38,922 nucleotides of DNA from Cylindrodendrum hubeiense. Its lineage: Eukaryota > Ascomycota > Sordariomycetes > Hypocreales > Nectriaceae. Position 1 is the stretch's first letter. The number at the start of each line of letters is the position of its first letter. The DNA lies in NCBI GenBank assembly GCA_014621425.1, contig JAANBB010000386.1, positions 1 through 38,922 of the forward strand. Direction: 5' to 3'. The position numbers and the translations under genes were made by a program. Of this stretch, positions 28,822 through 36,048 are shown piece after piece. Under the pieces are notes generated by a model, which was not told the DNA's origin, searched no databases, and was given only the letters and a program-made list of their open reading frames with translations.

Positions 28822-31800
28822 TTACAGGCTGGGGTCAAGCCAAGTAGTGGTTTGCGTATTGAGATTGGCATAGTAAATATGACCATCGGAAGTGAAGCGG
28901 CTCTCCCACCCATCGGGAAGTTTACCGCCGGAGGCAATTTCTTTCAGATGTCGACGGGGGTCGAGCCAAGTGGTAGTACGCGTGTTATGATTTAGAAAGT
29001 AACAATGGCCCTCGGAACTCCAGCGTTTCTCCCACCCAGGGGGAAGTTCATCGGCGTCGCGGTTTTCCTCGCTCGTTTTGCTGCCGGCCTCTCCGTCGCT
29101 GCTGGGGGGAGCAACTTGGTCGCTGCCGTGTGTAGTCACTTTGTTGCCAGGCGCAGAAAGCTTGAGGGTGAGCTTCCCGTTAATCTTTGTATTATCCGCT
29201 GGAGGATTCAAATCGTGAGTGGTCACGAAGGCTGGATATTTATATCAGCATCAATACACTCTTCGCGAAGCTTGTGGCTTGGCCAGGTAACAGTCGCGCC
29301 TACCATCTGCATCGGGGCCAAAGTCTATCATGACATCTCCAAGCCGAATACTCACAGAGCCGAGGAGCCCGATGAGTTCTTGATCACTCTTCTCAGGCTC
29401 ATTTTGGTCAAAGATTTGGATGAGAAGAGTGCTGTTGTCGTCGACCGAACTGTCTAGGTATTAGCTATGACTTCTTTATGCTGGCCTTATCGGTTCGGAT
29501 GGTATCCCACAGGTCAAAGGACTCATTCCAATGTGGATTCACGCTGCGCTTTATAATGGCAGTTGTCTTTGTCTGCTTGCCATCGACGGTCAAGACAGCG
29601 AACGTGTTCGGTGGACCTAAAACTGTTAAGTATCGTTGGGTTTGCACGGTTGAGAACTTGACATACGGAATGTATCCCACTTAATGAGACCTTTACAGGC
29701 CACGACTGCGATGATGTGAATATAAAGTGCTGATCAATAATGAGAAGGCATTGGGTAACGAACTTGCCACACGAAGCTTCCACGTTGGGCCACTGTGTTT
29801 TATTCTATATATGAGTGTTAGTCTCTGATTGTTCTGCTATAGTCGGCATCGTGACATAGATTTACTCACTTGGGCCAGTCCTCATCATGGAATTTTGGGG
29901 GGGCCCTCTGAGGAGTCTCAGGAGCCCTTGGTTTACTCGAAGTAGAATTCACTTCGTCCCGCGAAGATGAATTTGTGGGAAGGGAGACCAGGCTGTCTCG
30001 GTCTGAGAGATTGGAGTTGTCCTGCCGCGACTGGTCCCGAGACCCTTGATCAAAGTAGTTTCCGTCATCGAAGTAGGCATCGCCCACGTCTTTGTGCTCA
30101 TCATTTTCCTCAGACGACTCACCTTGAATTGAATCCTTCGCCCACGGAAGAGACCATAGGGCAAAGGCATGTATATGCTCGGCGATATGATCCGTGAGCT
30201 CTGGCGAGTCTGCCGGGCCAGTTGAATCACAGAGCGGACAGTTACTTATCCCAGGAGGAACTGGCCTGGCAGCGTCTACAACGAGTGTTGAGTGCTGTCT
30301 CTCGCTGATGGTGTCGCTGTGGTCTTGGCGCAAGTGATCGAGAAGGCCGTCGACAGAGGGAAAGACGAGTGGTGGCTTGCCTGGAAATGTGCAGGGCGGG
30401 CAGTGCCAACATTGCTGATGCTCTTTTTCAACATGTTTAGCCCACTCGTTCCGGGTGACGTAGAGCCTATCTGGCTTGGGGCAGTCCTCGATGATGCACA
30501 CGTAGGGGCAGATATCCGCCATGAGGTGTTTTCTGTGCGTGCGTAGTGTCAGATCAAACTCGAGCTTTCTTAGCACTAGGAAGCGATAAAATGTTGTCTG
30601 TGACTTACTTCCAGAGTGTATTTTGGCGATAAATATCTGGCAGTGTCTGGGCGCAGCAAGGGCATTGAAAGAAGCGCAGGCCTTCCTTCGCCCTCGGCGG
30701 CCTGGGGTAGACAATCTTGGCCGTTGTGGTAGTGATATTGGTCTTTGCAACCTGTGATGGCGTGTGGTCTTGCCGAGGAACAGGTTCAATGGTCTGCACG
30801 ACCGTGGAAGCCAAAGTGGATGTCAACGCCGCATATTGGGGAAGCGTCTGATTACCGTCTGGGCTATATCCTTGAGGGTCTTTGATTCCAGTCTCTTGTC
30901 CTGCCTCTTGCCCTTCACCTTGTGCCTGTGAGGTTTGGCTATTATCGGGAAGGGCTACATTGGATGGGATAAATCGATTATCGGCATCGACAGCCAACTT
31001 CATTGCGTGTCTATACGCATATATATACCTATTTCTTCGGCGGAGGTTGGCAATAATAAGCCGCTCTTGTACGGGGGTTAGGAACTGGGCATCAACGGCG
31101 TATTCTGTACGGCCTTCTTCACTGCCCTTGGCTAGGACGACTATGTTGAGGTGATCTCGTAGCTTCTGGTGGCGCTGAGGGTTGAATATGTTGTCGGCTT
31201 TGTGTATCCGTGAGCTGGTCCCGGATTTGCGTATAGCGATGGCTACGCGGGTGAGACGATCAATAATCTGCTCGACTTCGGTCTTTACCCCTGATAGGAA
31301 AGTCACGTTCTTCCTTTCTTGCACTTGGTCATTATCTGAACCTGGACCTGATTCGGGATCTGGGTTCGATGACGAATCATCTGACCACGGCGAGAAAGAT
31401 CGCGGAATGTCTTGTGCGAAGCCCTGTTTCTGATGGGGGTCTTCCTCGCTCTTTGACCACTCGGCTTCATCATCCTCGGCCCGTAATGCTATTGAGATAT
31501 TGTGAGATCACGCTAGAAGCCTGTTTAATAGACTTAATCACCTACCGCATGTTTGACATTTGTGCAAGCACGCAAGCAACAGGACAAGGATACCCGTGAC
31601 CAAATTCTTGGTTTCCAACTCCATTGCTAACCGGGCATCGAGCGAAGCCCTCTCGGGGGCGAATGTTCCTGTCATCGCTGTCCATAGGCTGAACTCGGCG
31701 AGCCTGTTCTCTGCCCACTCGAGCTCCATCAGCGGTAAAATCTTGGTGCATTGCTGTAGCGCATCTCGACACTGTCTGGCCGCGGCCTCTATAGAGTCTC

Positions 31801-33417: not shown

Positions 33418-36048
33418 TCAACCCACACATGCATCTGCTATCGCCGCCCAAGCCTTTTCGGCGTCTTTACTGGCAAAGAACGCCATGGGCGAGATAAAGT
33501 ACGACCTGTTCCCCATGTTCTGCGACATCCTCGTCAGCGCGGCTCGCATACCCCGTTTCGTCCACACCCTCTGCACCTCTACTGGTAGCTTGGCGGTCTC
33601 GGTTTCCATCCCAACGCTCACAAATGTCAGGACCATGGCCGCAATGCCCGCCGCCATGGCCGTGGCTACCGACGATCCCGACTTGGCTACCTCGCCGTCT
33701 ACGCTGCTGAGCCATGCCGAAGGCACCTCGCGTCCTAGCGTACCAAAGGCGGCGGGACCGTCCAGGTCGACGGGTGGATTTGTGTCCGAGAAAGCACCCC
33801 GGCTATTCGTTTCGCGGATCGAAATAACGGAGTCGAGATTTGCGGGAAACATCTCACGACGGTTGCCGCCTGAGTTGGAGGCCGCGGCGAGGAAGATAAT
33901 ATTGCCCTTGCGCTCAAGTATCGCCTCGGTGATGGCGGTGGTGATGATTGGGATCTCTTCCTGGAAGCCAAAGGACATGGAGATAATATCCGCCTTCATT
34001 TCAATGGCGGCCCAGTGGATAGCCTCCACAATGGACTGTGTCGCATTCTTCAGGCTTCCCCTATTCTTGGCTATCCTCGCCGCATAAATCATGGCATTCG
34101 GCGCGACCTTCATGACAAGGGCCATAGTATGACTTCCATGTCCGTTCTCATCCACGGGGGACTCTTCATCACCAGCCCAATCTCTCCACCCTTTGATCTT
34201 CCCCCTGCGGCCGGGTCCGTTGAAGAAAATGGCCTCGTCGTCGAAGCCGGTATCTAGAATGGCCACTCTGGGTGCCCGAGCGGATGTGAAAGACGCTTGT
34301 CGCTGAATATATCGATTAATGGTATTGACTTCGTCAAGCCATCGGGCAGACTGGCTAGCGTCACGGTTTTCGGTGGGCAGAGCTAGCACGGCAGGGATAT
34401 CAAGAACCCGACCTGGCCCTTGAATCGTGTCGATGGGGTCCAAGATGTGCAGGTTTTCTGCGAACCCGAGCTCCTTGAGAAGCTTTTCCAAGGGCTGCAC
34501 AACGTCATCATAAATAGCTGCCTTACGCGCAAAGACATCTGTATCAACGGATCCGCTTTCCTCCGAGGACGGGGTATAATTGAGGCACCCGAGGATAGCC
34601 TTCCGGTAGTGCGGATAATCAAAGTCGCCCCAGGTTCTATTCTTGTTGGTGAGCCGTTTGGCCAACGTCCACGTCTCGTTGAGATTTGCCTCTGCCGAAC
34701 CATAGTCCTCGACGGCTAAGCTCTGCCCTCTTCCTATCTCCAGAAGCATGATGCATAGTGCGAGTAATCGTGGGTAGCGGAAGATGACACCGAAGGAGCT
34801 GCAGTATTCCATGGATTGGCCGCCATGGTCCTCAAACTCGACAGCAAAGTATGGTTTAGAGGCGTAAAGGGCATCCCCGGAATGAGCCTCGTCTTCCACT
34901 GGCGACTCTGGAAGGAAATGAATTGAGTCGCTCGTCCACTGCGAGTCCATCCACGGAGAATCATAGTATCGCCAGAAGGATCGCGCGACGATATATGCTA
35001 ATACCAGTTTCATGCGGTTGGACAATCGTCTGATCTCAAGGACCTTTCTGAGCGAAAAGCTGGGGCCAGGGTTGACATTTTGGGCAATGGGGAAGCCGTC
35101 GTAGAGCTGGTGAAGCTCCGAGTCCTGGATATGACAACATATTTGAGAACCCAGCTTGGTCTTGACGAGACTGCAAAACTCTTCGGGTGGCACGACTCGT
35201 GTCTTGTTTATAACACGGTTGGGACAATTGGGTAGAATCTTGCAGCTGTCGCCGTCGTCGAATTTGACTCCCCTCCTAGCCTTCTTCAGGGGCAAGCGGA
35301 GCTGAAGGTCCTGCCAATGGTCCCATCCCGTGGGCGACGCTGAGAAGAGCATATCAAACGCGACGTGACCGTTGACCTTGACGATATCGTCCCGCAACCT
35401 GAGCCTTGCATGGTGTCGCTTCCGCTCGGGTGAGCAACCTTTGAAACATGTACAAAGCGAATGCGACCTTAAGATAGCGTAGAGATCGGTATTGACATGG
35501 GCGGGATATTCTTCGACAGTGCTTCTATCCCCTCTTTTGGCCTTGTCGCTGATTCTATCATTGTCATCCGTCACCACGACCGACTTGGAGAACTTTTCAA
35601 GTTTCTTGAGGTATTGCTCGATCACGTAAGGGGAAGCCTTGGAGAAGCTGATGAGGCCTTGTCTTACGCGGTCCTCGGTCGCGTTTCCTTTCACACTGAC
35701 GACCGATCGGAGGATCGAATTGTAGGGGTCCGGCGGTTCTGGCCACTACACAATGCGTCAATTGTCGCACCATCCACCATGCCCAATTATACGTACTGCA
35801 CACACTCGCTCTAGGTCTTTTAACAGCTTGGGAACCCGCCGTTGTAGCTTGGGTAGCTGCGCAACGTCGGCCGAGTCTAAGGCTTTTCTGGCAATCAGCA
35901 ATTCGGCGGCAAGACAGCCGGCGACGCACAGCTTCTTGCGCGCCCCAAGCTCGACTGCGATCTGCGAAACACGCGATAGAGCATCTTTGGCGAAATCAAA
36001 AGGACTGTCGCCGCCCGCGCCGCCTGGGCCAGCGAGGAGTACCTGCAT
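33418..36048 (-). CDS. DUF7580 domain-subtilisin (S8) fusion protease
   Basis: Exons 35797-36048 and 33418-35745 (leftward) give 859 aa in phase 0; the 51-nt intron has a GTACGT donor and a TGTAG acceptor. Residues 1-180 are helical and lack a signal peptide, so the protein is probably cytosolic. A DUF7580-type region (about 200-430) contains SLRKVLEIRRLSNRMKLVLA, SPWM and ALCIMLLEIG. The C-terminal peptidase S8 domain carries Asp582 (AILDTGFD), His620 (NGHGSH), oxyanion Asn708 (AASNSGG) and Ser776 (SGSSVATA), so it should be active. S8 domains occur as effectors in fungal NLR-like and heterokaryon-incompatibility proteins; Podospora HET-Q2 is an S8 protease that cleaves gasdermin HET-Q1. The frame is closed by TAG shortly before the start, so 36048 is the first usable ATG, unless an upstream exon joins at 36069. 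Confidence 0.85.

What the first reader, a model, noticed from the sequence alone, without database searches (positions are those of the whole stretch)
28822..36048. Candidate three-gene cell-death module: C2H2-C2-WW protein, gasdermin-like protein, DUF7580-subtilisin
Three neighbouring genes fit a sensor/adaptor, executioner and activator. The S8 protease has all catalytic residues. The 281-aa neighbour has a gasdermin-like layout and a possible cleavage linker. The third gene has the N-terminal region of fungal NLR-type proteins plus C2 and WW binding domains. Established knowledge: fungal gasdermin genes often sit beside S8 or CHAT protease genes, and HET-Q2 activates HET-Q1 by cleavage. 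The added C2-WW gene sharing a divergent promoter with the executioner would be a new component. It could recruit PY-motif partners or act as a decoy for Rsp5 targets.
Basis: partly seen in the sequence, partly recalled or inferred. Interest (0 to 1): 0.88.

Follow-up and report, generated by a model that had tools for sequence, protein, structure and literature searches.

The report
Three-part fungal cell-death gene module
A fungal pore-forming death protein and the protease thought to unleash it sit beside a third gene with an interchangeable tail, which recurs at other such sites and may be the sensor that decides when the cell dies.

Summary
In Cylindrodendrum hubeiense (Nectriaceae) the window carries a 281-aa fungal gasdermin (RCD-1 fold), a DUF7580-subtilisin protease, and a Cys/His-rich gene ending in C2-WW-WW. 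Gasdermin plus S8 protease is a known two-gene fungal cluster. The third gene is the real find. At 7 of 9 gasdermin loci found genome-wide in this assembly, its conserved core and a DUF7580-S8 gene lie within 10 kb; an eighth triad came from a local profile search. Consecutive locus tags give the triad in Colletotrichum gloeosporioides and Pestalotiopsis fici, and one 30-kb contig in Fusarium heterosporum. The core (helical bundle plus four conserved Cys/His sites) is one family, but its C-terminal tails are not: 47 long tails fall into 17 rough groups (NACHT-type, ankyrin, TPR, WD40, kinase, nucleosidase, S8 and others). In the window the tail resembles the C2-WW part of the Rsp5 ubiquitin ligase without HECT. 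Best reading: an uncontracted pyroptosis-like pathway of separate sensor, protease and pore, with a swappable sensor tail, here perhaps an Rsp5 decoy. That the core senses rather than inhibits is inferred. No function was tested, and the primary paper on gasdermin-protease clusters could not be read.

The parts
28822..31843 (-). Third gene: Cys/His core plus C2-WW-WW tail (deposited as G7Z17_g10964, P0050). Introns inferred at 31545-31489, 30608-30533, 29869-29805, 29763-29730, about 29666-29617, 29510-29450, and 29303-29199 or 29303-29232
   Evidence: Splice models; deposited protein P0050 has a shorter model
30050..31843 (-). Conserved core: N-terminal helical bundle, long helix, and region with four conserved Cys/His sites
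   Evidence: Homologues; conserved Cys/His columns; model of homologue P0064; paralogues
29304..29804 (-). C2 domain of the variable tail (with introns)
   Evidence: Pfam C2 E 5.2e-16; 43% identical over an 88-column aligned stretch to own-genome Rsp5
28957..29046 (-). WW domain 1
   Evidence: 75% identical over 32 residues to a WW of Rsp5 of the same genome
28831..28920 (-). WW domain 2
   Evidence: 56% identical over 32 residues to the same Rsp5 WW
31844..32437 (.). 594-base 5' region between the divergent third gene and the gasdermin gene
   Evidence: Start codons
32438..33283 (+). Fungal gasdermin, 281 aa: pore-forming domain about 1-229, low-confidence acidic linker 230-244, short C-terminal segment 245-281
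33418..36048 (-). DUF7580-S8 subtilisin protease, about 859 aa (deposited as G7Z17_g10966, P0111); intron 35796-35746 in the model used, other splice choices possible
34471..35457 (-). DUF7580 domain of the protease gene
33619..34272 (-). Peptidase S8 catalytic domain
   Evidence: aligned to subtilisin BPN'

Best explanation
This is a three-component regulated-cell-death module. The gasdermin is the pore former, held inactive by a short C-terminal segment. The DUF7580-S8 protease removes that segment, as HET-Q2 does for HET-Q1. The third protein is the receptor: its N-terminal helical and Cys/His core docks on the DUF7580 protein and controls it, and its interchangeable C-terminal tail senses a disturbance. 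In the window the tail is a HECT-less likeness of the Rsp5 C2-WW part, which could act as a decoy bound by foreign PY-motif proteins or as a monitor of Rsp5 clients. Shown here: family identities, the gasdermin fold, recurrent linkage of the three genes, correlated divergence of core and protease, core-S8 fusions, and different tails on a conserved core. Inferred: cleavage, docking on DUF7580, sensing, and cell death.
For: Gasdermin; low-confidence linker and short C-terminal segment, like HET-Q1 (about 5 kDa lost, likely cut at F238; PMC12881547 section 20). Protease. Linkage in this genome: 7 of 9 gasdermin loci found genome-wide have a core and a DUF7580-S8 gene within 10 kb, plus an eighth triad at C46 found with a local profile; 10 of 13 core loci at E<=1e-3 lie within 10 kb of a DUF7580 locus against 0.16 expected, and 14 of 19 with weaker ones. 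Other species: CGLO_12881/12882/12883; PFICI_14069/14070/14071; all three on a 30,341-base contig of Fusarium heterosporum. Orientation: the core gene diverges from the module gene on its 5' side in 8 of 8 triads (window). Distance matrices: protease-core rho 0.49 (P 0.0008) over 11 triads and 0.57 (P 0.0012) over the 8 of this genome. Fusions: core-S8 proteins P0058 and P0059, without a DUF7580 label. Tails: 60 cores form 1 family, 47 tails of 200 aa or more form 17 groups. Rsp5 likeness.
Against: No biochemical or genetic evidence. Gasdermin-protease distances correlate weakly (rho 0.32, P 0.058 over 11 triads; 0.05, P 0.42 within this genome), and gasdermin-core only modestly within this genome (0.33, P 0.048); the triad proteins there were strung from exon pieces. 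Tail diversity also fits other roles. No nucleotide-binding domain in the window copy. The C46 gasdermin was found by looking where one was expected. Two of 10 gasdermin loci (C46:303.7k, C379:161.9k) have no core or DUF7580 detected within 10 kb. At C601:45.5-54.5k a DUF7580-S8 gene has neither core nor gasdermin in the stretch, and at C281:21.8-30.5k there is a core N-terminus and S8 but no gasdermin. 16 of 30 DUF7580 loci have no core detected within 10 kb. In Metarhizium anisopliae the gasdermin and S8 tags found are 65 apart and on contigs of different length. Foldseek found no solved relative of the core at E<=0.001.
Confidence: 0.58

Rival explanations
1. The core protein is a brake, not a sensor: it binds and silences the protease (or the gasdermin) like an antidote, and the tail sets where it sits or how stable it is. 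Death follows its loss or titration.
For: Recurrent adjacency with divergent transcription and correlated divergence with the protease fit an inhibitor-target pair equally well.
Against: Many tails (NACHT-type, NB-ARC, ANK, TPR, WD40 labels) belong to the repertoire of fungal receptors. Two homologues carry an S8 label and three a PNP_UDP label on the same chain, which is odd for a pure inhibitor.
Confidence: 0.22
2. The core protein is a C2H2 transcription factor that switches the cluster on.
Against: No Pfam match of the core part at E<=0.1; tails are enzymes and repeat domains, including proteases fused to the core; Cys-to-His gaps of 15 and 18 residues in two of the sites are not the classical one (recalled).
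Confidence: 0.08
3. The gasdermin is not activated by this protease; like RCD-1 it is triggered by meeting a divergent partner, and the protease and core form a separate pathway.
For: The closest solved structure is RCD-1, whose activation is described as co-assembly of two allelic variants; gasdermin-protease distances correlate weakly; core and DUF7580 pair up without a gasdermin elsewhere.
Against: 10 of the 48 non-window gasdermin hits share a contig length with an S8 hit; a low-confidence acidic linker and short C-terminal segment are present, as described for the protease-controlled HET-Q1.
Confidence: 0.1
4. The genes merely share an immunity-rich genomic island; adjacency carries no functional meaning.
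For: Fungal gasdermin genes show birth-and-death evolution and strain-specific expansions (PMC10197012 section 15), and duplicated blocks can keep neighbours together.
Against: Across 11 triads mean identities are 26% (gasdermin), 28% (core) and 32% (protease), although C390 and C52 are closer at 54, 38 and 50%; the arrangement is seen in other genera; 0 of 25 S8 loci without DUF7580 nearby have a core nearby.
Confidence: 0.04

Closest known systems
het-Q1/het-Q2 and fungal gasdermin-Q2L protease two-gene clusters
   Same: Gasdermin with a short C-terminal segment beside an S8 protease gene (PMC10197012 section 15).
   Different: Described as two-gene units in which the protease protein is itself the receptor. 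Here the protease exon given to Pfam shows DUF7580 and S8 only, and a separate third gene carries the variable tail.
RCD-1 of Neurospora crassa
   Same: Closest fold in the PDB.
   Different: Activation by two divergent alleles; the review section read describes no protease partner for it.
Fungal NLR receptors
   Same: Tails of core homologues include NACHT-type, NB-ARC, ANK, TPR and WD40 labels (some accession names recalled); the window tail resembles an integrated decoy; the N-terminal bundle is loosely like the Rx coiled-coil and HET-s domains.
   Different: The window protein has no nucleotide-binding domain; the conserved part is an N-terminal helical and Cys/His core.
Rsp5/NEDD4 HECT ubiquitin ligases
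   Same: C2 followed by WW domains; WW1 is 75% identical to a WW of the same genome's Rsp5.
   Different: No HECT domain; fused behind the Cys/His core.
PF26082 (zf-C2H2_AcuF; name recalled)
   Same: Some core homologues carry this precomputed label.
   Different: Most listed core homologues lack the label, and it says nothing of linkage or tails; the model is not in the library held here, so it could not be tested.

Membership tests
Fungal gasdermin | Gasdermin pore-forming fold | tested here: met
Fungal gasdermin | Sequence homology to HET-Q1 or RCD-1 | tested here: met
   E 7.2e-5 and 1.8e-3
Fungal gasdermin | Short C-terminal segment after a flexible linker | tested here: met
   pLDDT under 50 at 230-244, then one helix and two strands; a predicted feature only
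Fungal gasdermin | Pore formation and cell killing | not testable with these tools
   Needs expression
Q2L (HET-Q2-like) protease | S8 domain with its catalytic residues | tested here: met
   Pfam E 4.5e-21; alignment to BPN' spans the DTG, GHGSH and SGSS stretches (residue roles recalled)
Q2L (HET-Q2-like) protease | Within 10 kb of a fungal gasdermin gene | tested here: met
   134 bases between the two 3' ends in the window; 8 triads in this genome (and window)
Q2L (HET-Q2-like) protease | Cleaves the gasdermin | not testable with these tools
   Needs biochemistry
Fungal NLR (third gene) | NACHT or NB-ARC domain | tested here: not met
   No such Pfam match in the window protein; labels present in some homologues
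Fungal NLR (third gene) | N-terminal signalling bundle of the HeLo/Rx-CC type | tested here: inconclusive
C2H2 transcription factor (third gene) | Classical zf-C2H2 fingers | tested here: not met
   No Pfam match at E<=0.1, although Cys/His ligands are conserved
Rsp5/NEDD4 ligase (third gene) | C2 plus WW domains | tested here: met
Rsp5/NEDD4 ligase (third gene) | C-terminal HECT domain | tested here: not met
   The frame ends two residues after WW2; no HECT match; HECT present in own-genome Rsp5

The most novel reading that the evidence does not exclude
The Cys/His core defines an unrecognised class of fungal immune receptor that partners with DUF7580-effector proteins. With DUF7580-S8 it controls gasdermin; with DUF7580-PNP_UDP it would control a nucleosidase. 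Its tail is a swappable bait, here captured from Rsp5, so one conserved chassis reads many threats.
Probability: 0.42. Interest if true: 0.87.

Novelty: new variant of a known kind. Interest (0 to 1): 0.74.

Why it matters
A 2025 review names the stimuli that activate the putative sensors of fungal death pathways as a major open question and says the control of the gasdermin-activating proteases remains to be uncovered (PMC12881547 sections 20-21). Another says the 18 identified architectures covered roughly a third of about 1,500 Q2L proteases (PMC10197012 section 15). A separate, conserved receptor gene beside DUF7580-S8 proteases would supply a missing sensor for some of them, show that fungi also have an uncontracted pathway of separate sensor, protease and pore, and give each locus a readable clue, its tail, to what it watches.

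Tried and rejected
Considered and dropped: (1) C2-WW as the conserved feature: no other core homologue shows a WW label (some rows of labels are cut). (2) The third gene as an NLR: no NACHT/NB-ARC in the window copy. (3) Known fold for the core: Foldseek gave no match at E<=0.001, and the VIA second look gave helical-bundle matches of uncertain meaning; other folds were not excluded. (4) Linkage outside fungi: pattern-based scans of viral contigs with the core alignment and the S8 protein, and of prokaryote genomes with the core alignment, confirmed no relative; records of the window's own genome may be left out there. (5) Papers: searches listed no paper whose title or abstract start describes a zinc-finger partner of gasdermin clusters; several matched more papers than were listed (28 with 15 listed; 116 with 10; 23 with 12). 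One search was a search on decoys and Rsp5 (179 matched, 10 listed) with nothing on fungal gasdermins listed. Seen of papers: passages of PMC12881547, PMC10197012, PMC9815663, PMC11138114 and PMC12258605, sections 20 and 21 of PMC12881547 and section 15 of PMC10197012; the rest only as listings. The primary paper (Clave 2022, PNAS) is not held, so it may mention such neighbours. (6) Contig sharing between searches was read off by eye from contig lengths and locus tags; long contigs without consecutive tags do not show closeness (for example P0058 and P0123, whose tags are far apart). (7) Co-evolution of gasdermin and protease within this genome: not found. (8) Seven homologues with unlabelled tails were rescanned and gave no Pfam match, so those tails are of unknown nature. 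(9) The statistics use locus midpoints typed by hand, S8 rows collapsed to 33 loci, DUF7580 rows to 30 loci of which two are under the Pfam cut-off, and assume random independent placement.
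Full report
What is there. The window is contig C319 of a 47.5-Mb, 798-contig assembly. Deposited proteins on a contig of the same length name the organism Cylindrodendrum hubeiense, Hypocreales, Nectriaceae. Three genes lie in 28822-36048. The gasdermin ORF reads rightward from 32438 to 33283. The third gene reads leftward from 31843, 594 bases away, to 28822. The protease gene reads leftward from 36048 to 33418 and converges on the gasdermin with 134 bases between their ends.

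Protease. DUF7580 and Peptidase_S8 are both clear, and no other Pfam family matched the main exon at E<=0.1. The S8 part aligns with subtilisin BPN' (E 9e-15).

Recurrence in the same genome. Single-protein searches found 9 gasdermin loci. At 7 of the 9, a DUF7580-S8 gene and a core gene lie within 10 kb: C319, C791, C390, C52, C268, C534, C157 (the S8 part at C268 only in the local searches). A profile run on fetched stretches added an eighth triad at C46:271-280 kb; that one was found by looking where it was expected. The two gasdermin loci without a detected triad are C46:303.7 kb, which has an S8 gene without DUF7580 about 5 kb away, and C379:161.9 kb. Of 13 core loci at E<=1e-3, 10 lie within 10 kb of one of 30 DUF7580 loci, against 0.16 expected if placed at random; with 6 weaker ones it is 14 of 19. 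Of 25 S8 loci without DUF7580 nearby, none has a core nearby and one has a gasdermin nearby. The P values there assume independent loci and are too small to the extent that blocks were duplicated together. On the other side, 16 of the 30 DUF7580 loci have no core detected within 10 kb, a DUF7580-S8 gene at C601:48-51 kb has neither core nor gasdermin in 45.5-54.5 kb, and C281 has a core N-terminus and S8 without a gasdermin. In all 8 triads the core gene is transcribed away from the module gene on its 5' side, which is the protease in 6 and the gasdermin in 2; at C268 the gasdermin lies on the core's other side (window).

Recurrence in other species. By locus tag, the three genes are consecutive in Colletotrichum gloeosporioides (CGLO_12881 to 12883) and Pestalotiopsis fici (PFICI_14069 to 14071), and lie on one 30,341-base contig in Fusarium heterosporum. 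Neighbouring tags also join gasdermin and core in C. kahawae, F. sarcochroum and Amphichorda felina, gasdermin and protease in C. jinshuiense, and core and protease in Apiospora arundinis and A. kogelbergensis. Read by eye from contig lengths, 10 of 48 gasdermin hits share a contig with an S8 hit, 7 with a core hit, 3 with both, and 12 of 60 non-window core hits share one with an S8 hit; some of these contigs are megabases long. In Metarhizium anisopliae the gasdermin and S8 tags found are 65 apart. The lists hold cluster representatives only, so absence means little.

Co-inheritance. Over 11 triads (8 here, 3 from other species), mean identities are 26% for gasdermin, 28% for the core and 32% for the protease; C390 and C52 are closer. 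Protein distances correlate between protease and core (rho 0.49, P 0.0008) and gasdermin and core (0.50, P 0.0026), and less between gasdermin and protease (0.32, P 0.058). Within this genome alone (8 triads) they are 0.57 (P 0.0012), 0.33 (P 0.048) and 0.05 (P 0.42). The tightest tie is therefore between core and protease.

Fusions and other partners. Two Trichoderma proteins, P0058 and P0059, carry the core and an S8 domain on one chain without a DUF7580 label. This suggests, but does not show, that DUF7580 is the docking part when the two are separate. At C5 a core gene sits beside a DUF7580-PNP_UDP gene, and at C601 a core is followed by a PNP_UDP frame. The core is thus a partner of several kinds of DUF7580 protein, and gasdermin joins when the effector is S8.

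Swappable tails. Of 61 proteins tried (60 homologues and the window), 60 have a core match reaching the last zinc site; these cores form one family, while the 47 tails of at least 200 residues fall into 17 groups. The grouping is rough: three kinase tails stayed apart and repeat tails merged. Labels include NACHT-type, NB-ARC, ankyrin, TPR, WD40, kinase, phospholipase C, PNP_UDP and S8 (names of some accession numbers recalled). Among the 19 homologous tails whose cores are at least 40% identical to the window's over 150 residues or more, there are 8 groups, none shared with the window. In this genome an ankyrin repeat (C52) and TPR repeats (C46) lie in the same frame as the core's zinc region; an EF-hand pair (C390), a kinase (C534) and a weak DUF676-like match below its cut-off (C791) lie in the next frames downstream and are assumed to be spliced on; the C157 and C268 frames gave no Pfam match.

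The window's tail. The C2 and WW domains match NEDD4-type ligases first among solved structures. The same genome's Rsp5 (HECT E 5.1e-81, three WW) has a WW 75% identical to WW1 over 32 residues and a C2 stretch 43% identical. The tail has no HECT. It looks like a captured Rsp5 targeting part.

What it most likely does. Known fungal gasdermin clusters are described as two-gene units in which the protease protein is the receptor (PMC10197012 section 15; PMC12881547 section 21). [quoted passage not shown] Here the receptor-like variability sits in a third gene while the protease keeps a simple layout. The simplest reading is a separated pathway: core protein senses, DUF7580-S8 cuts, gasdermin makes pores. 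Whether the core activates or restrains the protease cannot be told from sequence.

Limits. No RNA, protein or genetic data. Neighbourhoods in other species rest on tags and contig lengths. The primary paper on gasdermin-protease clusters could not be read, so the claim that the third gene is undescribed rests on the searches listed under Tried and rejected and on the passages and sections read.

Noticed in passing
L020 and L053 (G000:C5:86085-92800): A core gene divergent from a DUF7580-PNP_UDP gene, with no S8 domain or gasdermin detected in the stretch: the same partnership with a nucleosidase-type effector.
   Followed up: partly
L058 (G000:C601:18800-22500): A core gene followed on the same strand by a PNP_UDP frame, perhaps one fused gene; the DUF7580-S8 gene on this contig lies about 28 kb away.
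   Followed up: partly
window 28822-31843: The deposited model of this gene (P0050, 691 aa) starts later and skips part of the C2 domain compared with the splice model used here.
   Followed up: partly
L041, L062, L063 (G000:C281:21800-30500): Only the N-terminal part of a core plus an S8 domain were detected by profile, with no gasdermin in the stretch: possibly a decaying or partial module.
   Followed up: partly
L035, L064, L065 (G000:C601:45500-54500): A DUF7580-S8 gene with neither core nor gasdermin detected in the stretch: a possible orphan protease.
   Followed up: partly
L011 (G000:C46:302223-306050) and G000:C46:309680: A gasdermin about 5 kb from an S8 gene that has no DUF7580 match: the plain two-gene form in the same genome.
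   Followed up: no
L026 (C379) and L037 (C47): Short frames upstream of DUF7580 begin in a way that recalls HeLo/SesA-type N-termini (recalled; the one tested gave no Pfam match). They sit near core genes, so other effectors may use the same partner.
   Followed up: partly
window 24150-27470: A long frame resembling a TFIID subunit TAF1 (recalled, not searched).
   Followed up: no
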